Source: Peribacillus simplex
Lineage (GTDB): Bacteria > Bacillota > Bacilli > Bacillales > DSM-1321
Direction: 5' to 3'
Length of the DNA: 64,000 nt
NCBI RefSeq assembly: GCF_900156045.1
Contig: NZ_FTMX01000004.1
Location: forward strand, 248,001 to 312,000
Below, in pieces: positions 15,319 through 30,266 of the stretch. The position numbers and the translations under genes are program-made. Numbering within the stretch: position 1 is the stretch's first letter; each line of letters opens with the position of its first letter. The notes under the pieces were generated by a model. The model was not told where the DNA came from. It did not search any database and saw nothing but the letters and a program-made list of their open reading frames with translations.

Positions 15319-16065
15319 TTACCAAGGTTGACTTGTTGGTCCAATTGTAAACTCATTAATGTTCGTATCATCTGGCTGATCAATCGCGAATGCCACAACA
15401 TTGGCAACTCGATCAGATGTAATACCGTATTGTTTGTACAAAGCAGTCATACCTTCTGAAGTATCCTTATCCGTAATCGTATCCAACAATTCCGTGTTGA
15501 TTGCTGCTGGATAAATAGTTGCTGTGCGGATGTTAGTACCTTCTTGGGCAGATTCCATACGCAGAACCTCCATTAAATCACGAACAGCCCACTTTGTTGC
15601 GCCATAAACCGCACCTCCTGGATAAGCTTTAATCCCAGCTACTGATGAAGTGGTGATGATATGTCCAGAATTTTGCGATGTAAATGTTGGCAATACTGCC
15701 GCGATACCATTCAACACACCTTTAATATTAACATCAACCATGCTATTCCACTCGTCAGTTTTTAATTCAGAAAGGGGTGAGTTAGGCATTATTCCAGCGT
15801 TCAAGAAGATTACATCTACGCCACCAAAAGTGTCTTTAGCTAGTTGAACAAGTTGCTGACTATCATCTGGATTAACAACATCTGTGACGCGATAAGCAGC
15901 TTGTCCACCAGCTTTTTGAATTTCCTCGGTCAATGCTTTTAATTTGTCTTCGCGACGAGCGCCTAAAACAATTTTAGCACCTTTACTCGCCAATAATTTT
16001 GCAGTTGCTTCTCCAATTCCAGATGAAGCTCCAGTGATTATAACTACTTTGTTTTCAATTGCCAT
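15319..16065 (-). CDS. SDR-family oxidoreductase (YdfG-like)
   Basis: The 248-residue protein has TGASSGIG near residue 11 for NADP binding, NAGIMPNS near residue 90, and the intact active site SSVAG followed by YGATK. It resembles the NADP-dependent YdfG/serine-dehydrogenase branch of classical SDRs. The start follows AGGAGGAATAAAG. The next upstream gene on the same strand is a LysR regulator about 330 bases away, with a decayed SDR copy beyond it, so LysR-SDR pairing seems to have been duplicated here. The substrate is unknown. Confidence 0.92.
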   Translation of the reverse strand: MAIENKVVIITGASSGIGEATAKLLASKGAKIVLGARREDKLKALTEEIQKAGGQAAYRVTDVVNPDDSQQLVQLAKDTFGGVDVIFLNAGIMPNSPLSELKTDEWNSMVDVNIKGVLNGIAAVLPTFTSQNSGHIITTSSVAGIKAYPGGAVYGATKWAVRDLMEVLRMESAQEGTNIRTATIYPAAINTELLDTITDKDTSEGMTALYKQYGITSDRVANVVAFAIDQPDDTNINEFTIGPTSQPW

Positions 16066-16391: not shown

Positions 16392-17300
16392 CTATATATC
16401 TGATAAAGAACTTGGAAATTTCCCCTGAATTTCTTTTAAAAACAGTTCAGCAGCAGCGGAAAAAACCTGATGCTTTTTCCAAACAATGTTTAAGCCAGAT
16501 TCAAGTCTTGGTTCTAGCGGTCTAAAACAAAGGTTACTATCACTAGACGTATTTACTATTTTATCAAGGGTTAGTGCATAACCAATACCCTCTTCAACCA
16601 TGATCGCAGCATTATAGGCAAGATTGTATGTAGTCACGACGTTTAATTTATCAAAATTTCCACCAAACCAATCTGCAAATTCATTTTTAGACAATGTTTG
16701 TTTCATAGCCTGCCGTGAACAGATTAGCGGAACATTTAATAAATCCACTGCTTGAATGGTATCTTTGAAAGCAAGAGGGCTATCTTTCCTCATAACAACA
16801 CCCCAAACATCTTTGGTTGGGATATTGACATAATTGTATTTGGATAAATCCGCCGGTTGAATTAATATACCAAAATCAAGCAATCCCTTGTCAAGCCGTT
16901 CATTCACATCATCTGAATTTCCACTGTACAGGTGATACCGGATATTTGGATAACTCAATTGTAAATTTTTCACTACCCGTGCAATCTGTCTCATGGCGTC
17001 AGTTTCCCCACCACCTATATATACGTCACCACTTATTGTTTCTTCCATAGAACTAAATTCTACACCTAATTTTTCGACCATATCAACGATTTCTTCTGCT
17101 CTCTTTCGGAGGAGCATCCCTTCATCTGTGAGTATGATACTGTGACTACTGCGAATAAATAGTTTTTTTCCTAACTCTTGTTCAAGATCTTTTATTTGTC
17201 TTGACAAGGTGGGCTGTGTCACATGCAAAACATTAGCTGCAGCTGTTATGCTTCCTTCTCTTGCAACAGTAAGAAAATACCTCAAAACTCTAAATTCCAT
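16392..17300 (-). CDS. LysR-family transcriptional regulator
   Basis: The 302-residue protein begins MEFRVLRYFLTVAREGSITA and has the LysR helix-turn-helix LHVTQPTLSRQIKDLEQEL near residues 25-43, then a complete substrate-binding domain. Members of this branch often sit divergent to SDR genes. Here the divergent SDR (17457-17703) is broken, while an intact SDR lies downstream at 15319. A decayed copy of this regulator lies at 22793-22972. It may act on the intact SDR gene and itself through the dyad at 17359-17377. Confidence 0.93.
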   Translation of the reverse strand: MEFRVLRYFLTVAREGSITAAANVLHVTQPTLSRQIKDLEQELGKKLFIRSSHSIILTDEGMLLRKRAEEIVDMVEKLGVEFSSMEETISGDVYIGGGETDAMRQIARVVKNLQLSYPNIRYHLYSGNSDDVNERLDKGLLDFGILIQPADLSKYNYVNIPTKDVWGVVMRKDSPLAFKDTIQAVDLLNVPLICSRQAMKQTLSKNEFADWFGGNFDKLNVVTTYNLAYNAAIMVEEGIGYALTLDKIVNTSSDSNLCFRPLEPRLESGLNIVWKKHQVFSAAAELFLKEIQGKFPSSLSDI

Positions 17301-17791: not shown

Positions 17792-17872
17792 TGTTCATGG
17801 TAAACCAATAGTTTAAATTCCGTTTTATTGGCCTGTAACTGTACCCTTAATTGATAAAAGGATGTGAAAAAA

Positions 17873-19714
17873 TTGAACTACAAAAAGCTAGCAGAAGAAA
17901 TCATTTACTTCGTGGGTGGAGAAGAAAATATAAAAAATGTCGTGCATTGTGCAACGCGATTACGATTTAACCTTCATGATAATAAGAAAGCGGGTAAAGA
18001 AAAACTAGAAAATTTAGATGGTGTGTTGAGTGTTGTTGTAAATAGCGGCCAATTTCAAGTAGTAATTGGAAGCAATGTATCTGAAGTTTTTAAAGAAATA
18101 CAATCTGCTGTAAATATCGATGGTGAAGGAACTACAAGACCATCAAAGCAAAAAGTAAATATTATTGAAAAGGTTTTTGAAGTGATCTCAGGAAGTTTCT
18201 CGCCTTTACTTGGTGCGCTAGCTGGGGCAGGTATGCTGAGAGCATTAATAGCTCTTTTAACAATGACCGGTATCCTATCAACTGACAGCGGAACTTACAC
18301 TATTCTATTAGCTGCCGGGAATGCGATTTTTTATTTCCTTCCCATTTTTCTAGGTATCACAATTTCTACAAAGCTTGACGCAAACCCTTATGTAGGTGGG
18401 ATGATAGGAGCAACATTACTAGAGCCTAATTTCACTGGATTGTTAGAAAATCGTGGGGATATGACAGATTTCCTTGATATCCCTGTTGTTTTAATGGACT
18501 ATTCTTCATCTGTGTTTCCAGCTTTTATCGCAATCACTATTTATGCTTTATTAAATAGATATCTTAAAAAAATCATTCATAAAGATTTGCAAATGTTTAT
18601 GCTCCCTATGTTGGCTTTAATTATTATCGTGCCATTAACAACGATAGCATTTGGTCCTATTGGTGTATATATTGCTAATTCGATCGGAACTTTCATTAAT
18701 TTCTTATATGCAGAAACTGGCGTAGTAACTGGTGCTATCTTGGGTGGAAGTTGGACCTTCCTTACCTTATTTGGAATACACACTGGATTCACACCTTTTA
18801 TTCTTGAAAATGTAGCAATTGGAGGTGATCCGATTCTTGCATTGGTGTCTGCGTCTGTCTTTGCGCAAATCGGTTTAGCATTCGGTGTGTTCTTAAAAAC
18901 GAAAGATAAGAAATTAAAAGCACTGGCTGGCTCAACATTGATGCCTGGACTATTTTCAGGAATTACGGAACCAATCCTTTACGGGTTAGCACTTCGGTAT
19001 AAACGTGGACTTATTTATATAGCAATCGCCGGGATAATCGGTGGAGGTGTCAGTGGTTTACTTGGAGCAGTAGCCACTGCATATGCCTTTCCTTCTATGT
19101 TGAGTGTTCCTATATATTCTCCGTTAATTTCTTATGTTATTGCCATGTTTCTTGCATTTGCAGTTTCAGCCGGATTAACAATTGTTTTAGGTTTTGAAGA
19201 TAAGAAAACAAAAGCAATGGACGAAAAGAAATTAGAGTCAGAACCATCATCTGAAAAACACGAAACGATATTGAGCCCATTATCTGGTTTAGTTAAACCG
19301 TTAAAGGAAGTCAATGACTCTGTATTTTCTTCCTATGCGATGGGAAGAGGTGTTGCAATAGAGCCGACTGAAGGGCGAGTTACCTCTCCTGTGAATGGTG
19401 TCGTGACGATGGTTTTTCCAACCTATCACGCAATTGGGATTCAATCGGATGAAGGGGGAGAAATATTAATTCATATTGGAATTAATACAGTTTCGTTACG
19501 AGGAGAACATTTCTCATCTGAGATTAAGCAAGGAGACCGAGTGACTCAAGGGCAACATTTAATTGATTTCAATGTCGAGAAAATCAAAGAAGCCGGCTAT
19601 GAAGTAATTACACCGATTATCATAACCAATACAGATCATTATATTGATTTTATTGAACTGAAATCCGATACCGTTCAAGCAAAAGAAAGGTTGTTAACAT
19701 TAGTCCCGAACTAG
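17873..19714 (+). CDS. bglP: PTS beta-glucoside transporter subunit IIBCA
   Basis: The protein of about 613 residues joins three PTS domains. IIB carries the phosphorylated Cys in HCATRLRF near residue 28. IIC spans residues 105-440 with about ten membrane segments and GITEPILYG. IIA at the C-terminus carries the His in LIHIGINT. It imports and phosphorylates aryl-beta-glucosides or cellobiose. A TTG start at 17873 is favoured because AAAGGATGTGA lies five bases upstream; the GTG at 17864 sits inside that site. The 6-phospho-beta-glucosidase gene follows 180 bases later. No BglG-type antiterminator gene is present here. Confidence 0.93.
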   Translation: MNYKKLAEEIIYFVGGEENIKNVVHCATRLRFNLHDNKKAGKEKLENLDGVLSVVVNSGQFQVVIGSNVSEVFKEIQSAVNIDGEGTTRPSKQKVNIIEKVFEVISGSFSPLLGALAGAGMLRALIALLTMTGILSTDSGTYTILLAAGNAIFYFLPIFLGITISTKLDANPYVGGMIGATLLEPNFTGLLENRGDMTDFLDIPVVLMDYSSSVFPAFIAITIYALLNRYLKKIIHKDLQMFMLPMLALIIIVPLTTIAFGPIGVYIANSIGTFINFLYAETGVVTGAILGGSWTFLTLFGIHTGFTPFILENVAIGGDPILALVSASVFAQIGLAFGVFLKTKDKKLKALAGSTLMPGLFSGITEPILYGLALRYKRGLIYIAIAGIIGGGVSGLLGAVATAYAFPSMLSVPIYSPLISYVIAMFLAFAVSAGLTIVLGFEDKKTKAMDEKKLESEPSSEKHETILSPLSGLVKPLKEVNDSVFSSYAMGRGVAIEPTEGRVTSPVNGVVTMVFPTYHAIGIQSDEGGEILIHIGINTVSLRGEHFSSEIKQGDRVTQGQHLIDFNVEKIKEAGYEVITPIIITNTDHYIDFIELKSDTVQAKERLLTLVPN

Positions 19715-19893: not shown

Positions 19894-21369
<1,476 letters not shown>

Positions 21370-21409: not shown

Positions 21410-22591
21410 ATGAAGAATTCTAATAGTTTATTTATATTTATCTTAGCAGTTGGTGTATTTGGTATTATCAATACCGAAATGGGCGTAATTGGTATACTCC
21501 CTGCCCTAGCGGATCACTTTGATGTCAGTGTCTCTACAGCTGGTTTAATGGTTAGTCTTTTTGCGCTAGCCATTGCCATTGCTGGTCCAACTCTACCATT
21601 AGTATTTTCACGTATAAATCGAAAAAAGGTCATGTTACTGGTATTAGCTATATTCATTATCGGTAATGTTATTTCCATTTTTACAACTAATTTTACAGTA
21701 GGATTGCTAGTTCGTGTTATACCAGCCTTCTTCCATCCTGTATATGTCTCTATTGCTTTATCAGTAGCTGCTGCCTCTGTTAGTGAAAGGGAGGCACCAA
21801 AAGCCATCTCTAAAGTATTTATAGGGGTTTCCGCAGGTATGGTTCTAGGTGTTCCTGTGGTAAGCTTTATTGCCAATACGATTTCACTTGAAATGGCGAT
21901 GTCCTTTTTCGCTGTCGTAAATATTTTTACATTTATTGCGACTTTACTATTTGTACCTTCTATGCCTGTGCAGGAAAGACTTTCTTATGGTTCTCAGCTA
22001 AAAATTTTAACGCAGGGCATTACTTGGCTCTCTATTTTGGCAGTTCTTTTTTTAAACGCAGCCATTTTCGGTGTATATAGTTACCTAGCTGAATATTTAG
22101 ATGTAGTAACGAATATGTCATTAAATATGATTAGTACCATGTTACTTGTCTACGGCTTAGCTAATATTATTGGGAATATTATCGCAGGCAGATTACTAAC
22201 GGACCATCCAATTCGTTCTGTCACAATCTTTCCCATTGTATTAACTGCTATTTATATTATCTTTTTCTTTGTGCGAGAGCTTACTGTACCTACAGCTATT
22301 ATTATTTTAGTTTGGGGGATGCTTGGAGGTATTGGTGCAAACATTAATCAATATTGGATTATGTCGTCTGCGCCCAAAGCTCCAGATTTCGCGAATGGGT
22401 TATTCTTAACTTCCGTTAACTTAGGTACAACTATCGGTGCTGGTGTAGCCGGAATCATTATCGCACAATTTGGCACAGAATATATTTTATTCGTAGGTGT
22501 ACTTACATTAGTATTAGGTTTTATATGTATTTTACTTAGAAATTATATGTATAGACTTAAAACAAATCAACTAATAGAGAATGATTATTGA
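21410..22591 (+). CDS. MFS transporter, DHA1/AraJ-like sugar or drug exporter
   Basis: The 393-residue protein has twelve predicted membrane segments. Features include NTEMGVIGILPALADHF in the first loop and SRINRKKVMLL in the loop after segment 2, the motif A region of the major facilitator superfamily. It resembles the AraJ/YdhP-like DHA1 group of exporters. It starts 40 bases after bglH and follows GGAAGTGG, so it may be read through from the bgl genes. A strong terminator follows it. The substrate cannot be inferred. Confidence 0.88.
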   Translation: MKNSNSLFIFILAVGVFGIINTEMGVIGILPALADHFDVSVSTAGLMVSLFALAIAIAGPTLPLVFSRINRKKVMLLVLAIFIIGNVISIFTTNFTVGLLVRVIPAFFHPVYVSIALSVAAASVSEREAPKAISKVFIGVSAGMVLGVPVVSFIANTISLEMAMSFFAVVNIFTFIATLLFVPSMPVQERLSYGSQLKILTQGITWLSILAVLFLNAAIFGVYSYLAEYLDVVTNMSLNMISTMLLVYGLANIIGNIIAGRLLTDHPIRSVTIFPIVLTAIYIIFFFVRELTVPTAIIILVWGMLGGIGANINQYWIMSSAPKAPDFANGLFLTSVNLGTTIGAGVAGIIIAQFGTEYILFVGVLTLVLGFICILLRNYMYRLKTNQLIENDY

Positions 22592-23045: not shown

Positions 23046-23160
23046 AAGCAATGGGATATATGTATATAACACGCTAGAATAAATTACAAAGGAGGTTATG
23101 TGATAGCTGCCACAGAAGAAAATCCTTTAATTATCCTAATTTGAAAGGGTGTTATTTAAA

Positions 23161-24261
23161 ATGAAAAAAAAATCGATTATCATGCGTGTACTCACAATGA
23201 TAGCAATGGGCTTGCTTTTGTTTGTGACCATCGTTGCAGCCAAGACCGACGTTGGCGCCGTCTCCAAGACTGTTGCATACACGCCGGACATGTCCAATGG
23301 AGCAGACAATTTTTACAAGAGCAACAAGGTAAACATGAAGAAGGTTTCTTTTGAAAATCAATACAAGATGAAAGTTGCAGGGAACCTTTTTATTCCCAAA
23401 GGTTTGAAGAAGAAAACCAAAAATCCCGCAATCATTGTCGGGCATCCTATGGGTGCAGTAAAGGAACAAAGTGCGAATCTGTATGCACAAAAAATGGCTG
23501 AAAAGGGATTCGTTACTTTGTCCTTGGATTTGTCTTTCTGGGGAGAGAGTGAGGGGCAGCCTCGCAACGCTGTCTCGCCAGATATCTATGCCGAGGATTT
23601 CAGTGCTGCGATGGATTTCCTAGGCACGCGGCCGTTTGTTGACAGGAATCGGATTGGGGTTCTCGGGATTTGCGGCAGCGGGAGCTTTGCCATCAGCGCA
23701 GCCAAGATTGATCCGCGGATGAAAGCCATTGCAACAGTCAGTATGTACGAAATGGGGGCAGCTAACCGTAACGGGCTTAAACACTCGCAGACTGTCGAGC
23801 AGAGAAAGAAGATTCTTGAAGAGGCAGCAGAGCAACGCTATGTGGAGTTCACAGGCGGTAAAACCAAATACACCAGTGGGACGGTACATGAACTAAATAA
23901 AAACTCTACCGAAATTGAGCGTGAGTTTTATGATTTCTACCGTACTCCAAGAGGTGAATACACCCCTAAAGGTCAGTCGCCGGCACTTACAACGCATCCT
24001 ACGCTTACCAGCAACGTCAAATTTATGAATTTTTACCCATTCGAAGACATAGAGACGATATCTCCTCGTCCGATGCTTTTCATCGCGGGTGAAAATGCTC
24101 ATTCTAAGGAGTTCAGCGAAGAAGCATACAGGCTAGCCGGCGAACCGAAGGAACTCTACATTGTTCCGGGCGCAGGTCATGTAGATCTGTACGACCGAGT
24201 GAATTTAATTCCCTTTGACAAGCTTGAGTCCTTCTTCAAAGAAAATCTGAAGAAAAAATAA
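23161..24261 (+). CDS. exported alpha/beta hydrolase (YcjY/dienelactone hydrolase-like)
   Basis: The 366-residue protein starts with a signal peptide or anchor (MKKKSIIMRVLTM, then a hydrophobic stretch). The hydrolase core has GHPMGAVKE as an oxyanion-loop region, a nucleophile elbow GICGSGS, and GAGHVDLYD with the catalytic His. The elbow places Cys, not Ser, at the usual nucleophile position, as in YcjY-like proteins and dienelactone hydrolase. The ATG at 23161 is preferred over GTG 23149. It is richer in G+C than its neighbours, which suggests later acquisition. Natural substrate unknown. Confidence 0.85.
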   Translation: MKKKSIIMRVLTMIAMGLLLFVTIVAAKTDVGAVSKTVAYTPDMSNGADNFYKSNKVNMKKVSFENQYKMKVAGNLFIPKGLKKKTKNPAIIVGHPMGAVKEQSANLYAQKMAEKGFVTLSLDLSFWGESEGQPRNAVSPDIYAEDFSAAMDFLGTRPFVDRNRIGVLGICGSGSFAISAAKIDPRMKAIATVSMYEMGAANRNGLKHSQTVEQRKKILEEAAEQRYVEFTGGKTKYTSGTVHELNKNSTEIEREFYDFYRTPRGEYTPKGQSPALTTHPTLTSNVKFMNFYPFEDIETISPRPMLFIAGENAHSKEFSEEAYRLAGEPKELYIVPGAGHVDLYDRVNLIPFDKLESFFKENLKKK

Positions 24262-24766: not shown

Positions 24767-25513
24767 ATGAACAAACAATTAATCCATTCATTTGCATTGT
24801 TACTAGCCCTCGCCCTTACTGCTTGCAATAACAATGATATTGAAACAAAGGACAATGCTCGTCAAGAAGAGGGTTCCTCTGGGGCTAAGTCTGGGGAATA
24901 CGCTGAGATTGGATCTGGTGCTAACCTTGTAAAATTCCCTGAAGACCTTGAAAAGGGGATCGTGTTTGCCACTTATGATCGAGGAGATATCCATGAAAAC
25001 ATCTATGTAAATAGTAGGGAAGCAATTGAAGCGGTGCGGAATGGAGAGGAGCTTCCGAGCGGCACCGTTATCACTCTGGAAGGATTTCGAGATGGAGAGA
25101 TTGAGCATTATTTAGTGATGGAAAAGCGTACCGGCTGGGGTTCCAAATACTCGCCTGAAGAGCGTAATGGGGAATGGGAATACCAGCATTTCACACCTGA
25201 CAGAGAAGTGGCTGAAGACAATATTGGCCGTTGCTTTTCCTGCCACGCAAACCAGGAAAGAGATGACTATATGAATTCGATGGATCAGATGAAAGAGTTT
25301 GATTTGGGAGAGATTTCACAAGCAAAAAGCAGCAGTTCAGAAACCCCACTCGCATCTATCCTTACAGAGCATTGGAAGGTTAGTGAAATAGCTGCTCATG
25401 TGAATTATTCTAAGGATGTAAATAAAGATAGTAATGTAATAGATGATGAGGAAAAAGCGAAAAAAATTCAGAACGTTCTTTTAAAGATGTATTTACAGCA
25501 ATATAAAAGCTAA
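24767..25513 (+). CDS. cytochrome P460-family lipoprotein with CxxCH haem site
   Basis: The 248-residue protein begins with a lipoprotein signal (hydrophobic residues 7-17, lipobox LALTAC, Cys20). A low-complexity linker is followed by a P460-type domain (residues 45-165) with LEKGIVFATYDRGD, HYLVMEKRTGWGSKY and a haem c attachment site CFSCH (Cys156, Cys159, His160). P460 proteins of nitrifiers oxidise hydroxylamine or bind NO; Gram-positive members are not characterised. The ATG follows AAGGAGG. A DUF4405 membrane protein gene follows after 30 bases, so the pair probably forms a membrane-anchored redox unit on the outer face of the membrane. Confidence 0.85.
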   Translation: MNKQLIHSFALLLALALTACNNNDIETKDNARQEEGSSGAKSGEYAEIGSGANLVKFPEDLEKGIVFATYDRGDIHENIYVNSREAIEAVRNGEELPSGTVITLEGFRDGEIEHYLVMEKRTGWGSKYSPEERNGEWEYQHFTPDREVAEDNIGRCFSCHANQERDDYMNSMDQMKEFDLGEISQAKSSSSETPLASILTEHWKVSEIAAHVNYSKDVNKDSNVIDDEEKAKKIQNVLLKMYLQQYKS

Positions 25514-25543
25514 TCAAGCATTAAATAGAAAGAGGAGAATATT

Positions 25544-26248
25544 TTGAATCGAAAGATGTTATTCAGGCTTATTAATGACCTTGTTATGACAGTTCTTATG
25601 TTAATAGCAATGGCTTACTATATTACCGGAAATAGGATTCATGAAGTCATTGGCGTTGTGGTCCTTGTATTATTTATCGTCCATAATTTTTTAAATCGAC
25701 GTTGGTATAAAGCGATTCTAAAAGGAAAGCACACTTTTCGGCGTATTCTGCAAATCGGCCTCAATCTGCTTTTTCTAGTTGCAATGATTTTGATGATGAT
25801 ATGTGGAATACTAATATCCAGTGATATATTTCCCTTTATACCGATAACTAATGACATGACCTTCCGGCAATTACATGTTCAGACAGCCTATTGGGGATTT
25901 ATCATCATGGCTGTACACATAGGATTATCATGGGGAATGATTATCAATTCAGTACGGAGGATGTCGAGAATCACCGATATTAGCCCTATTCGTACCATTA
26001 CTTTACGTATTTTGGCGGTATTAATTGTTGCCTACGGGGTGCATTCCTCCTTTGAGGAAGAAATGGGTACTAAGCTATTCATTTACAACCCATTTGGTTG
26101 GTTCAATGATGATTCTACAATAAGGTTTTTAATTGACCACTTATCAATCATGGGAATCTATATTGCTGGGACACATTACGCTTTGAAATTTATTTCGAGG
26201 CAGGAACAAAAAGAGGCACCAAGAACTAGTGGAGGTTTAAAAGGATAG
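25544..26248 (+). CDS. DUF4405-type membrane protein, putative cytochrome b
   Basis: The 234-residue protein has five to six membrane helices. His residues lie inside or at the edge of helices, in LFIVHNFLNRRW near residue 46, RQLHVQTAYWGF near residue 109 and MAVHIGLSW near residue 125, a pattern expected for haem b ligands in DUF4405 proteins. A TTG start follows AGAGGAG. It is 30 bases after the P460 lipoprotein gene. It could pass electrons between the quinone pool and the extracytoplasmic haem c. This is inferred from family and neighbourhood. Confidence 0.82.
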   Translation: MNRKMLFRLINDLVMTVLMLIAMAYYITGNRIHEVIGVVVLVLFIVHNFLNRRWYKAILKGKHTFRRILQIGLNLLFLVAMILMMICGILISSDIFPFIPITNDMTFRQLHVQTAYWGFIIMAVHIGLSWGMIINSVRRMSRITDISPIRTITLRILAVLIVAYGVHSSFEEEMGTKLFIYNPFGWFNDDSTIRFLIDHLSIMGIYIAGTHYALKFISRQEQKEAPRTSGGLKG

Positions 26249-26419
26249 ATATCAAATGAATATCTTGGATTGGGTTCAGGCATCAGTTCAATAGAAGAAT
26301 ATGATGGGAACAGATGTAGCTTTATTCATTATGCTGATGGTACTCACCCTTCGGTAGTATTGCTAATGAAATAAAGGGTATCATCATCAATAAACGTACA
26401 AAAAGAAGGAGCAAACAAG

Positions 26420-26935
26420 ATGAAAAAACTGTTAGGTTTGGCTATCTTAGTAATGAGCTTTCTCCTCGCTGCTTGCAGCAGTAATGACAATAATTTATCT
26501 GAAACCGACAGAAGTCATAATGCAAGTGACAAATCAAACCGTGCACAAGAAGAACCAACAGAAGATAGCCTTTCAGATATAAGAATAAAATTATCGTTTA
26601 AAAAGGAGGAAGTACTTGTTAGAATGTACGATAATCCAGCAAGTAGGGATTTTTTAACTCAATTGCCGTTAACGGTAACATTTGAAGATTACGTAGGTAA
26701 AGAGAAAATTAGTATTTTACAGAAAAGATTATCAGCAGATAATGAGCAATCCCGAAACCAACCAACAAAAGGAGACTTTGCTTATTTTTCACCTTGGGGA
26801 AATTTGGCTATTTTTTATAAAGGTCTTGAAGATTCTACAAGTGATCTTATTATATTAGGTCAGATTGAATCAGGAAAAGAAAATCTTGAAAATATTCAAA
26901 GTGATTTTACAGTTTCAATTGAAAAAGTTGACTAA
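26420..26935 (+). CDS. lipoprotein with cyclophilin-like fold
   Basis: The 171-residue protein has a lipobox LLAACSS (Cys19), a charged linker of about 30 residues, and a C-terminal domain of about 115 residues. The domain reads like the cyclophilin-like (TM1367-type) family: VLVRMYDNPASRDFLTQLP, GDFAYFSPWGNLAIFYKG, then LIILGQIESG. The fold is an all-beta barrel; enzymatic activity is doubtful. RBS AAGGAG. It follows the DUF4405 gene by 170 bases and may belong to the same unit, although the spacer contains no other gene. Confidence 0.8.
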   Translation: MKKLLGLAILVMSFLLAACSSNDNNLSETDRSHNASDKSNRAQEEPTEDSLSDIRIKLSFKKEEVLVRMYDNPASRDFLTQLPLTVTFEDYVGKEKISILQKRLSADNEQSRNQPTKGDFAYFSPWGNLAIFYKGLEDSTSDLIILGQIESGKENLENIQSDFTVSIEKVD

Positions 26936-27126
26936 TTGATAGAGAATAAGATAGCTCCTTATATAACTCACTATTTTACTAAGAAACTATGCATTCCTCT
27001 ATACAACAATTTTTTAGAGAAGGTATTCATTCCAACAATCTATAACAGTTTTCTAACCATTATTGATTTATCATCCATGTTCCATATCATTGACTGAATT
27101 ACCGGTGATACCATAAAATGCCGAAA

Positions 27127-27320
27127 AAAGATAGTATCCGTCAAGCTGCGATTACATTAAATGAGCGGTATGGAAGATTAGTCGTATTGAATAATAATGC
27201 TGGCGTTTATTTGGATAAAACTGAAAAGTTATTGAATATGAACCTTCCATTATAGAAAAAACTATGGCAACTAATTTCTTTGGGGTTTACCATGTGGTAT
27301 TTAATATTATTGGGAATAAG
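27127..27320 (+). pseudogene. SDR internal fragment with frameshift
   Basis: The first frame reads DSIRQAAITLNERYGRLVVL followed by NNNAGVYLDKTEK. This matches the NNAG region of classical SDRs. After a shift near 27237 a second frame continues EPSIIEKTMATNFFGVYHVV, the following helix of the family. Both ends are missing. It is the third SDR relic within 10 kb and covers a different part of the gene from the other two. Confidence 0.85.
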
Positions 27321-27353
27321 CCTATTCGAGAACGACTCTCGAGTAGGCTTATT
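27315..27353. terminator. bidirectional intrinsic terminator
   Basis: AATAAGCCTATTCGAGA pairs with TCTCGAGTAGGCTTATT (one G-T pair) across five bases, followed by a T-rich run. On the minus strand it can also end the M20 peptidase gene. Confidence 0.85.
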
Positions 27354-27436
27354 TATTTTTAAAAAAAAGCCTTTACTTATGGTATGGTTCACGTAGTGCA
27401 TCTAAATGATTTTTTTATTTTTCCGTTATCAAACTA

Positions 27437-28903: not shown

Positions 28904-30131
28904 CTAAATTGCATTTTTTTTGAAAGAAGGAACCTCTTTTTTAGAGCGAATTAAAAATAAAGATCCTGCACATAATAGCGCAAACATAATCAGCATCATA
29001 AAAGCAACTGTATAAGAGCCGTCAAAAGCATCGACTAAAAATCCTATTAACATCGGAGTCAGAACACCAGCGAATTGGGCACCGGTATTAATGAACCCAT
29101 TTGCAGTACCTACAACCTCTTCAGATAGCATTTTTAATGGAGCTGAAATGATCAGAATAATATTAAACGACATGAATACAGTAACAACACTTTGATAGAC
29201 AGCAAACATTGCTATATTTGGCGCATAAGCCATTAAATATAGAAAGACCGCCGTTAATACTGCAAATACAGCTGCAATTACCTTATCTTTCCCTTCAGGT
29301 AATTTATCCAAAATATAGCCGCTTACAATCATTGCAATAATTCCTGCAAACGCTGGAATAGCTGAAATATACCCGACCGATGTTAAGTCGAGATGGCGTT
29401 CCGCCACTAAATACGTTGGCATCCACGCCATTAATCCCCATTGAACTGCGTAAATGGCAAAATAGGCAATGAACAAATTCCAGATAATCGGAGTTTTTAT
29501 AACTTCTCTTAAAGGCGCTTTATTTTTGGAGGGGTTTTCACTTTTTCCTACAGTTGAATCATTCCGCTTTTATGAAAAATACATAGAGGAAGGCAAATAT
29601 AATACCAATGGCACCCGCAATATAAAAGATGGTTCTCCAACCGATAGTTTGCATGGATTGTGTACCAATTATTGGTGTTATTACACCCATAATCGTCCCA
29701 GAAGTTAGCATGAAGGACATGGCACGGCTACGTTCATTTTGTGGAAACCAACTCGCAATACCTTTTGACGCAGATGGAAAAAAGCTGCCTTCCCCAAGTC
29801 CAAAAAGAAATCGAATGAGGATCAAGGACATGAAGGACCACGCCATTCCTGACAAAATCGTGAAAACGGACCAAGCAAAAACAGCCATGATAATGATTTT
29901 TCGGAAACCAAACCGATCTGCGAGCCACCCACCGGGAATTTGCATTAAGGCATAACCTGCAAAAAAGCTGCTTAAAACAATTCCAGTCTGGGAGGCACTT
30001 AAATGTAGATCCTCTGAAATGCCTAAAATCGCATAATTCATAAAAAATCGATCAAAGTTTCCAATTGACCATCCTAAAAATAGCAAGATGATAATGACAT
30101 ACTTCCAGTTCTGCGACAATTTAGATACCAT
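28904..30131 (-). pseudogene. MFS transporter (ACS-like) split by one frameshift
   Basis: The first frame (30131-29559) encodes six membrane segments with NFDRFFMNYAILGISEDL and motif GWLADRFGFRK and stops after FFIKAE. The second frame resumes without loss at NDSTVGKSENPSKNKAPLRE and continues through 28904 for the other six segments. The shift lies near 29560 at GCGGAATGA, where removing one G restores the frame. The sequence on both sides is well preserved, so this is recent or a sequencing error. The start ATG 30131 follows AGGAGG. It resembles anion:cation symporters of the sugar-acid/carboxylate type. Confidence 0.88.
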
Positions 30132-30266
30132 ATAATTCCTCCTAGCAAAATTAGTAGAATTCTGTATCATTATAAAAAATTCTGACTATTCAAACAATGT
30201 GTGATTCTATATAATAATTACATAAACTATGTGGAGGTCTACATATTCCTATGGAGGTTGTAAAAA

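What the first reader, a model, noticed from the sequence alone, without database searches (positions are those of the whole stretch)
24767..26935. P460 lipoprotein + DUF4405 cytochrome b + cyclophilin-like lipoprotein cluster
A lipid-anchored haem c protein of the P460 family directly precedes a membrane protein with helix-embedded His, then a second lipoprotein. In Gram-positive bacteria this combination is not assigned a function that I know. It could oxidise a small nitrogen compound or relay electrons across the membrane.
Basis: partly seen in the sequence, partly recalled or inferred. Interest (0 to 1): 0.65.

Follow-up and report, generated by a model that had tools for sequence, protein, structure and literature searches.

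The report
Paired membrane and surface haem proteins
Two neighbouring genes encode a predicted surface haem protein and a predicted membrane haem protein that stay together in unrelated soil and plant bacteria, beside genes that look like defences against toxic aldehydes and quinones; they may pass electrons out through the membrane to destroy a reactive chemical, which remains to be tested.

Summary
A lipid-anchored single-haem c protein (PF16694) lies 30 bp upstream of a DUF4405 membrane protein, with a cyclophilin-like lipoprotein (PF18050) next.

The c/DUF4405 pair is a conserved unit across phyla: 29 of 31 Bacillota loci, and 50 of 52 plasmid records with the haem c gene (mostly Rhizobiaceae), haem-c gene first. 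It is absent around 49 other, mostly proteobacterial, relatives. The cyclophilin-like gene is a looser associate (14 of 31 Bacillota loci).

The hydroxylamine-oxidase idea is not supported: the lysine that cross-links haem in cytochrome P460 and the distal carboxylate are replaced (Leu; Leu/Phe) in all 34 paired proteins compared. An Arg aligned with the distal cap of Nitrosomonas cytochrome c'-beta, a peroxidase-like protein, is invariant. DUF4405 keeps four His in two H-x13-H pairs (34 of 34), fitting a two-haem transmembrane relay; haem b is proven for another DUF4405.

Neighbours (LysR, aldo/keto reductase, hydrolase, SDR, MFS, CMD, beta-glucoside PTS) suggest an island against aldehydes, quinones or phenolics.

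Best explanation: quinol-fed extracytoplasmic haem peroxidase/reductase, like MsrPQ in layout. The pairing is shown; haem loading, electron direction and substrate are inferred.

The parts
24767..25513 (+). Lipid-anchored cytochrome c'-beta/P460-superfamily protein (248 aa); lipobox Cys20, haem c motif C156-x-x-C159-H160, putative distal Arg72, Leu104 at the cross-link position, Leu116 at the carboxylate position
25544..26248 (+). DUF4405 membrane cytochrome b candidate (234 aa, six long helices predicted), His33/His47 and His111/His125 as predicted ligands of two b haems; starts 30 bp after the haem c gene
26420..26935 (+). Cyclophilin-like (PF18050) lipoprotein, recurrent but non-obligate neighbour
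23149..24261 (+). Alpha/beta hydrolase (dienelactone-hydrolase/FrsA-like) with a signal-like N-terminus (by eye), recurrent neighbour (11 of 31 Bacillota loci at ortholog threshold)
21410..22591 (+). MFS transporter (nearest models Cmx/CmrA and AraJ, both below cut-off), recurrent neighbour (10 of 31)
19894..21369 (+). GH1 6-phospho-beta-glucosidase, present near the pair in some relatives
   Evidence: L105, L106, L043 and an L036 fragment
17864..19714 (+). Beta-glucoside PTS IIABC
   Evidence: TIGR01995 662.7 bits, cut-off 614.7
16392..17300 (-). LysR-family regulator, recurrent neighbour (8 of 31)
15319..16065 (-). SDR oxidoreductase, outer edge of the island (weak assignment: 6 of 31 loci, but also 2 hits in control windows)

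Best explanation
The two genes make one two-protein redox unit. The DUF4405 protein spans the membrane with two b haems held by His33/His47 and His111/His125. It takes electrons from the quinol pool (menaquinol in this Bacillota host) and hands them to the haem c of the lipoprotein, which is anchored by a lipid to the outer face of the membrane (apparently a free periplasmic protein in the alphaproteobacterial relatives). That haem c has an open distal site with an Arg cap and no lysine cross-link, as in Nitrosomonas cytochrome c'-beta, so it most likely reduces a peroxide or a similar oxidant (ferryl chemistry) outside the cell. The unit travels within stress islands whose other genes look able to reduce, hydrolyse or export aldehydes, quinones and phenolics, and may protect the envelope while such compounds redox-cycle. 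Shown: genes, conserved pairing and order, residue pattern, family kinship, neighbourhood enrichment. Inferred: haem loading, complex formation, quinol as donor, outward electron direction, peroxide as substrate.
For: Pairing: 9 of 10 haem-c-positive genomes in a 43-genome family scan, the window's own included, keep DUF4405 directly downstream; 8 of 9 in an order scan of 397 genomes, several of them the same genomes; 29 of 31 Bacillota loci in genome contigs; 50 of 52 plasmid records for each gene, 49 with matches <300 bp apart on one strand and the 50th 314 bp. Pocket: Arg72 34/34, Leu104 34/34, Leu/Phe116 34/34. Profile search ranks cytochrome c'-beta 7s5o first (E 9e-23) against 0.13-0.75 for true P460s; Foldseek also ranks it first. 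That protein has an Arg cap, forms ferryl with H2O2 and oxidises guaiacol, and the Lys70Ala change in NeP460 creates peroxidase-like activity (PMC11928373). DUF4405: haem b shown in one member and MsrQ/PepSY-like four-His arrangement (PMC11334425); four His 34/34. Neighbour families in 3-11 of 31 loci; at the same thresholds 0 of 46 control windows, except one SDR family in 2.
Against: No haem, complex or activity data. Peroxidase activity of the nearest solved relative is in vitro with a model substrate. A related group of haem c proteins, mostly proteobacterial, has no DUF4405 within the flanks held (0 of 49 loci; 17 of them placed in the tree), so the haem c protein can work without it. In the fold search two Methylococcus P460 entries rank right after 7s5o, above McCP-beta, so fold alone does not tell c'-beta from P460. 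Only residues 51-150 of the haem c model are confident; the CXXCH region is not (mean pLDDT 57). The DUF4405 model is weak (mean pLDDT 59) and its fold search was uninformative. No catalase, peroxiredoxin or OxyR-type gene was seen among the annotated recurrent neighbours. Arg72 as cap rests on alignment; in NeP460 a corresponding Arg points away from the iron.
Confidence: 0.38

Rival explanations
1. NO or other gas handling: the lipoprotein is a cytochrome c'-type gas binder at the membrane surface; DUF4405 keeps its haem ferrous or uses it to reduce NO.
For: The superfamily's c'-beta branch has a proposed NO-binding role (PMC11928373); hydrophobic residues at 104 and 116 fit a gas pocket.
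Against: The pocket carries an invariant aligned Arg, unlike the Phe-capped McCP-beta and TtCP-beta gas binders. No nitrogen-oxide gene was among the annotated neighbours.
Confidence: 0.2
2. Electrons flow inward: an extracytoplasmic dehydrogenase (aldehyde oxidoreductase or PQQ glucose/sorbosone-type dehydrogenase) passes electrons to the haem c protein, then DUF4405, then quinone.
For: PaoC (equivalog, 1355.5 bits over cut-off 1180) lies near the pair in A. fabrum; an XDH-type cluster directly follows the pair in two Rhizobium plasmids; a GSDH-family gene, a lipoprotein by eye, is near the pair in 5 of 31 Bacillota loci.
Against: Most loci examined have no such enzyme (GSDH 5 of 31, XDH/Pao 3 of 12). 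The Rhizobium iron-sulphur subunit match begins at profile position 50 of PaoA, so the exported N-terminus seems missing. An open, Arg-capped site is unusual for a pure carrier.
Confidence: 0.15
3. Cytochrome P460 hydroxylamine oxidase of Gram-positive bacteria.
For: Pfam Cytochrome_P460 match over the cut-off; Methylococcus P460 entries are ranks 3 and 4 in the fold search.
Against: No Lys at the cross-link position and no Asp/Glu at the carboxylate position in 41 of 41 and 34 of 34 sequences; characterised proteins lacking either do not oxidise NH2OH (Table 2 of PMC11928373).
Confidence: 0.04
4. Flavin-based extracellular electron transfer, as for other DUF4405 proteins next to ApbE.
For: Published DUF4405-ApbE clusters in Firmicutes. 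A flavodoxin gene lies near the pair in two opened alphaproteobacterial records (L107, L108), not tested for flavinylation.
Against: No ApbE (PF02424) in the window's genome, 0 of 1, while the control search found it in 7 of 14 genomes. ApbE was not searched in the other genomes.
Confidence: 0.03
5. The pair has a real but unrelated function and only shares mobile islands with carbonyl-stress genes.
For: Islands are reshuffled and occur on plasmids; partners vary locus by locus.
Against: The same neighbour types recur in two phyla, including one matching order; at the same thresholds the families are absent from control windows, one SDR family excepted.
Confidence: 0.2

Closest known systems
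Cytochrome c'-beta of Nitrosomonas europaea (NeCP-beta, cytochrome c'beta-Met, PDB 7s5o)
   Same: Best PDB relative by profile and by fold; no Lys cross-link, no distal carboxylate, Arg aligned with the capping Arg46
   Different: This one is lipid-anchored in a monoderm, has a longer C-terminal part, lacks an 18-residue insertion, has Leu where NeCP-beta has Met79, and is paired with DUF4405
Cytochrome P460 (NeP460, McP460)
   Same: Same superfamily and fold; single haem c
   Different: Lys cross-link and carboxylate absent; true P460s score only E 0.13-0.75 against the family profile
DUF4405 cytochromes (PF14358) of flavinylation clusters
   Same: Domain and four central His; six long helices predicted
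   Different: Partner is a c'-beta-type haem protein, not a flavinylated protein; no ApbE in the genome
MsrPQ (and quinol peroxidases such as YhjA)
   Same: Architecture: quinol-linked membrane or membrane-attached haem protein serving an extracytoplasmic reductase (MsrPQ recalled; the MsrQ/DUF4405 likeness from PMC11334425; YhjA from the abstract in the listing)
   Different: No sequence kinship claimed for the catalytic partner; substrate unknown

Membership tests
Cytochrome P460 / c'-beta superfamily | PF16694 match over the curated cut-off with C-terminal CXXCH | tested here: met
   45.9 bits against 27; CXXCH cysteines and His invariant 41/41
Cytochrome P460 / c'-beta superfamily | Beta-sheet P460/c'-beta fold | tested here: met
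   AlphaFold residues 51-150 at block pLDDT 70-90, the rest including the CXXCH helix low (mean 57.3); Foldseek ranks 1-12 are all c'-beta or P460 entries
Cytochrome P460 (enzyme) | Lys cross-linked to the haem | tested here: not met
   Position 104 is L/M/Y in 41/41 and L in 34/34; mapping through Table 2 of PMC11928373 and the 7s5o alignment
Cytochrome P460 (enzyme) | Distal carboxylate (Glu96/Asp102) | tested here: not met
   Position 116 is L/F/V/I/T/G/A, never D/E; L/F in 34/34 paired proteins
Cytochrome c'-beta, NeCP-beta type | No cross-link Lys and an Arg distal cap | tested here: met
   By alignment only: Arg72 41/41 and 34/34; its side-chain position is not shown
Cytochrome c'-beta, NeCP-beta type | Peroxidase-like activity | not testable with these tools
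   needs purified protein
DUF4405 cytochrome b | PF14358 match and four central His | tested here: met
   39.3 bits against 26.7; H33, H47, H111, H125 34/34
DUF4405 cytochrome b | Binds haem b | not testable with these tools
   shown only for another DUF4405 (PMC11334425)
Flavinylation-associated DUF4405 system | ApbE in the genome | tested here: not met
   0 of 1 in own genome
MsrQ | Partner MsrP, a molybdopterin methionine-sulfoxide reductase (recalled) | tested here: not met
   The adjacent partner gene is a haem c protein

The most novel reading that the evidence does not exclude
A two-component class of quinol-dependent extracytoplasmic haem peroxidase/reductase (diheme DUF4405 plus Arg-capped cytochrome c'-beta), described in none of the papers my searches listed or opened, shared by Bacillota and Alphaproteobacteria inside plant-associated islands that take up aromatic beta-glucosides and neutralise their aldehyde, quinone or cyanohydrin products; it would give the 'half-way house' cytochromes c'-beta a physiological partner and role.
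Probability: 0.27. Interest if true: 0.8.

Novelty: new variant of a known kind. Interest (0 to 1): 0.6.

Why it matters
[quoted passage not shown] A dedicated membrane partner kept in two phyla gives that branch a likely electron source and makes its role testable by gene deletion in ordinary soil Bacillus relatives and rhizobia. It also gives DUF4405, which the papers I saw place in flavin-based, hydrogenase or organohalide gene regions, another kind of partner.

Tried and rejected
Rejected: hydroxylamine oxidation (Lys and carboxylate absent); flavinylation in this host (no ApbE); the idea that the haem c protein always needs DUF4405 (0 of 49 non-Bacillota loci of the genome-contig scan carry one within the flanks held, some flanks being cut by contig ends); the idea that the cyclophilin-like gene is foreign to the unit (first seemed so from the short loci, then found near the pair in 14 of 31 Bacillota loci and, as annotated, in A. 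fabrum).

Led nowhere: solved-structure search with the cyclophilin-like protein (0 hits) and with DUF4405 (only CRAL-TRIO hits at E 0.03-0.6, taken as chance); Foldseek with the DUF4405 model (best E 0.29); a PF16694 scan of 198 genomes in the group of G424 (59 of 198 positive; kinship not stated, not used for pairing); promoter/terminator scan (18 promoter-like sites against 12.5 expected; 2 terminator-like sites against 1.9, one inside the haem c gene and one at 27314-27354, none between the three genes), so co-transcription rests on the 30-bp gap; paper searches for the island's gene set (listings: nothing on this cluster; one paper, PMC7464077, opened at passages, reports a CMD gene induced by hypochlorite in Burkholderia and no MsrQ or cytochrome).

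Limits: the genome-contig scan used two motifs taken from Bacillota proteins, so it under-samples other kin. The 34 pairs are a choice: 24 of the Bacillota pairs held (window and L106 included) and 10 of the alphaproteobacterial plasmid pairs. Neighbour families were chosen because they recur at P460 loci; control stretches were roughly evenly spaced positions picked by me in four genomes of the host's genus that carry the pair; at a loose 50 bits the controls do hold 1-3 hits for both aldo/keto reductase, both SDR, the LysR and the Zn-ADH families. No control was made for the plasmid neighbourhoods. Counts are not independent: the genomes overlap the 31 loci (L003 and L016 have the same contig coordinates), two organisms give two loci each, and L104/L108, L158/L161, L110/L155 are near copies. 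Recurrent ORF clusters of the GC-rich loci were mostly not annotated, and some there are wrong-strand ORFs. In one search a simple lipobox pattern also flagged two alphaproteobacterial signal peptides (L108, L109), which I treat as false. Correlation of P460 and DUF4405 identities (r 0.83 in 24 Bacillota, 0.82 in 10 alpha plasmids, shuffle maxima 0.58-0.59) shows that they travel together, not that they interact. HMMER's alignment of McCP-beta puts its Gly82 opposite window Gly125, not Leu116, so the carboxylate position rests on the 7s5o alignment; neither place is acidic in the window protein.
Full report
What is there. The window belongs to a Peribacillus-type genome (inference: same-genus handle G021 gives the same match coordinates as plasmid NZ_CP017081.1 of Peribacillus muralis). 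Three intact ORFs on the + strand match the finding: 24767-25513, 25544-26248, 26420-26935. Pfam: Cytochrome_P460, DUF4405 and Cyclophil_like2, all over their cut-offs. DUF4405 starts 30 bp after the haem c gene; the cyclophilin-like gene starts 171 bp further on.

Is the pairing conserved? In the host's family, 10 of 43 genomes have the haem c gene; in 9, the window's own included, the DUF4405 gene follows directly, and in the tenth (L011) the haem c gene is truncated and no DUF4405 was found. In a sample of 397 genomes of the order, 9 match: 8 have DUF4405 directly downstream and the ninth is a weak broken remnant without it; so the system is rare and patchy. In genome contigs, 81 relatives were confirmed and 80 kept: 31 are Bacillota and 29 of those have a DUF4405 ORF directly downstream; two of the 29 (L018, L024) look truncated or frameshifted, and the two exceptions (L020, L044) carry decayed DUF4405 remnants. 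The other 49 kept loci, nearly all proteobacterial, have none within the flanks held. Searching the plasmid collection with the Ensifer pair found 52 records for each gene; 50 hold both, all on one strand with the haem c gene first, 49 with matches less than 300 bp apart and one 314 bp. The two haem-c-only records are partial matches. Of the two DUF4405-only records one lies between transposase genes (L159) and one was not inspected.

Phylogeny. A tree of 53 proteins separates an alphaproteobacterial paired group (99/97), a Bacillota group (99/97, holding all 24 paired Bacillota rows plus the L044 protein whose DUF4405 decayed), and unpaired, mostly proteobacterial proteins (17 rows, fork 95/68, not starred). 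Of the 24 Bacillota rows 19 show a lipobox pattern, four rows were cut before it and one (L037) has PAC; the 10 alphaproteobacterial ones look by eye like Sec-exported soluble proteins. That is consistent with one extracytoplasmic job.

Haem pocket. Using PMC11928373 (first parts of sections 4 and 6, section 24, and search passages read) and the 7s5o alignment (a chain-numbering offset of 20 is my inference and fits all three table residues), the cross-link Lys maps to Leu104, the distal carboxylate to Leu116 and the capping Arg46 to Arg72. Across 41 homologues position 104 is L 36, M 4, Y 1; position 116 is never D or E; Arg72 is 41 of 41. In 34 paired proteins: R 34/34, L 34/34, L 21/F 13. 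The family profile scores NeCP-beta at E 9e-23, McCP-beta about 8e-9, true P460s 0.13-0.75. Foldseek also puts NeCP-beta first (E 3e-7), but Methylococcus P460 next (4e-5), above McCP-beta (3e-4). NeCP-beta forms a ferryl species with H2O2 and oxidises guaiacol; the review says the Arg cap presumably contributes.

DUF4405. A published member binds haem b and its predicted structure resembles MsrQ/PepSY, with four central His (PMC11334425, passages). Here His33/47 and 111/125, each pair 14 residues apart, are invariant in 34 of 34; His211 in 32 of 34; His63 and His199 vary. The AlphaFold model has six long helices but low confidence (mean pLDDT 59). The genome has no ApbE match, so the flavinylation role known for this family is unlikely in this host.

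Neighbourhood. At ortholog-level thresholds, within up to 4 kb on each side of 31 Bacillota loci: alpha/beta hydrolase 11, Dkg-like aldo/keto reductase 11 and a second one 4, MFS 10, cyclophilin-like A 9 and B 6, LysR 8, TetR 8, AraC_N 7, SDR 6 and a second one 3, GSDH 5, Ahr-like Zn-ADH 5, MerR 5; 46 control windows gave 0 for each except the first SDR family, 2 (looser control hits are given under limits). Names such as Dkg-like mean nearest model, below its cut-off. By a looser search the cyclophilin-like gene is near the pair in 14 of 31, and next gene downstream in 8, one of them after a decayed DUF4405. I opened 15 annotated plasmid regions other than L159 (L104-L111, L154-L158, L160, L161) and set aside the sparsely annotated L160; two are Bacillota. 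Of the 12 alphaproteobacterial ones, within 6-8 kb: LysR 12, aldo/keto reductase 8, alpha/beta hydrolase 8, CMD 5, cupin 5, SDR 5, MFS 5, adenylate/guanylate cyclase 4, XDH/Pao genes 3, flavodoxin 2, cyclophilin-like 1 (not independent, no control, gene tables incomplete). A. fabrum 12D13 has LysR-MFS-hydrolase-haem c-DUF4405-cyclophilin-like, the window's order except for the PTS/GH1 genes (haem c and DUF4405 genes identified, the rest as annotated). The window, P. muralis, P. megaterium and L043 also carry beta-glucoside PTS and 6-phospho-beta-glucosidase genes, and L036 a fragment of the latter; three cupins of Ensifer/Sinorhizobium loci pass the (R)-mandelonitrile lyase model. Aromatic beta-glucosides release phenols, quinones, aldehydes or cyanohydrins (established chemistry, recalled), so a plant-chemical detoxification island is a reasonable reading; it is inference.

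Mechanism. Anatomy (four-His membrane protein, lipid-anchored open-site haem c, fixed order, correlated divergence r 0.82-0.90) supports a transmembrane electron relay with an outer catalytic haem. The aligned Arg cap without cross-link favours peroxide or related oxidant reduction over NH2OH oxidation or pure gas binding. Direction and substrate are unproved; rivals are listed with probabilities.

Literature. Searches 'cytochrome P460' or 'DUF4405' (75 papers, 30 listed), 'cytochrome P460 family' (2), 'DUF4405' (8, 7 listed) and 'cytochrome P460'+'Bacillus' (10, listing) showed no paper on this pair in the titles and abstract starts listed; passages of PMC8649781, PMC12727194 and PMC8865925 do not describe it. 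PMC11334425 has no mention of P460 and PMC11928373 none of DUF4405, Bacillus, Firmicutes or Gram-positive in its main text. Subscription journals are mostly not held, so absence in print is not shown.

Noticed in passing
window 27115-27300: Probable remnant of an SDR gene after the cyclophilin-like gene (an NNAG-type stretch in one frame, then a stop, with a further SDR-like stretch in another frame); P. muralis has intact SDR genes in this island.
   Followed up: partly
window 28904-30170 (- strand): An MFS transporter seems split into two ORFs (28904-29476 and 29559-30170), possibly a frameshifted or broken gene.
   Followed up: no
L036:4001-4738: Looks like a chimera: the first part follows one Bacillota subgroup of the haem c protein, the C-terminal tail the window's subgroup, suggesting recombination between subgroups.
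   Followed up: no
L111:5412-5903, L108:6367-6837, L104:5372-5842: Cupins beside the pair in Ensifer and Sinorhizobium pass the (R)-mandelonitrile lyase equivalog model (181.7, 193.8 and 193 bits against 140).
   Followed up: partly
genome G427 (locus L049), contig C38:56111-57166: Two P460-superfamily genes in tandem in Bradyrhizobium iriomotense, besides a third on contig C67.
   Followed up: no
L045-L054: Proteobacterial relatives without DUF4405 still often lie beside LysR genes (L045, L049, L051, L052, L054), and some beside aldo/keto reductase (L049), CMD (L050, L051) or cyclophilin-like genes (L045, L046, and L048 of Desulfobulbaceae), so the stress-island link may be older than the DUF4405 pairing.
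   Followed up: partly
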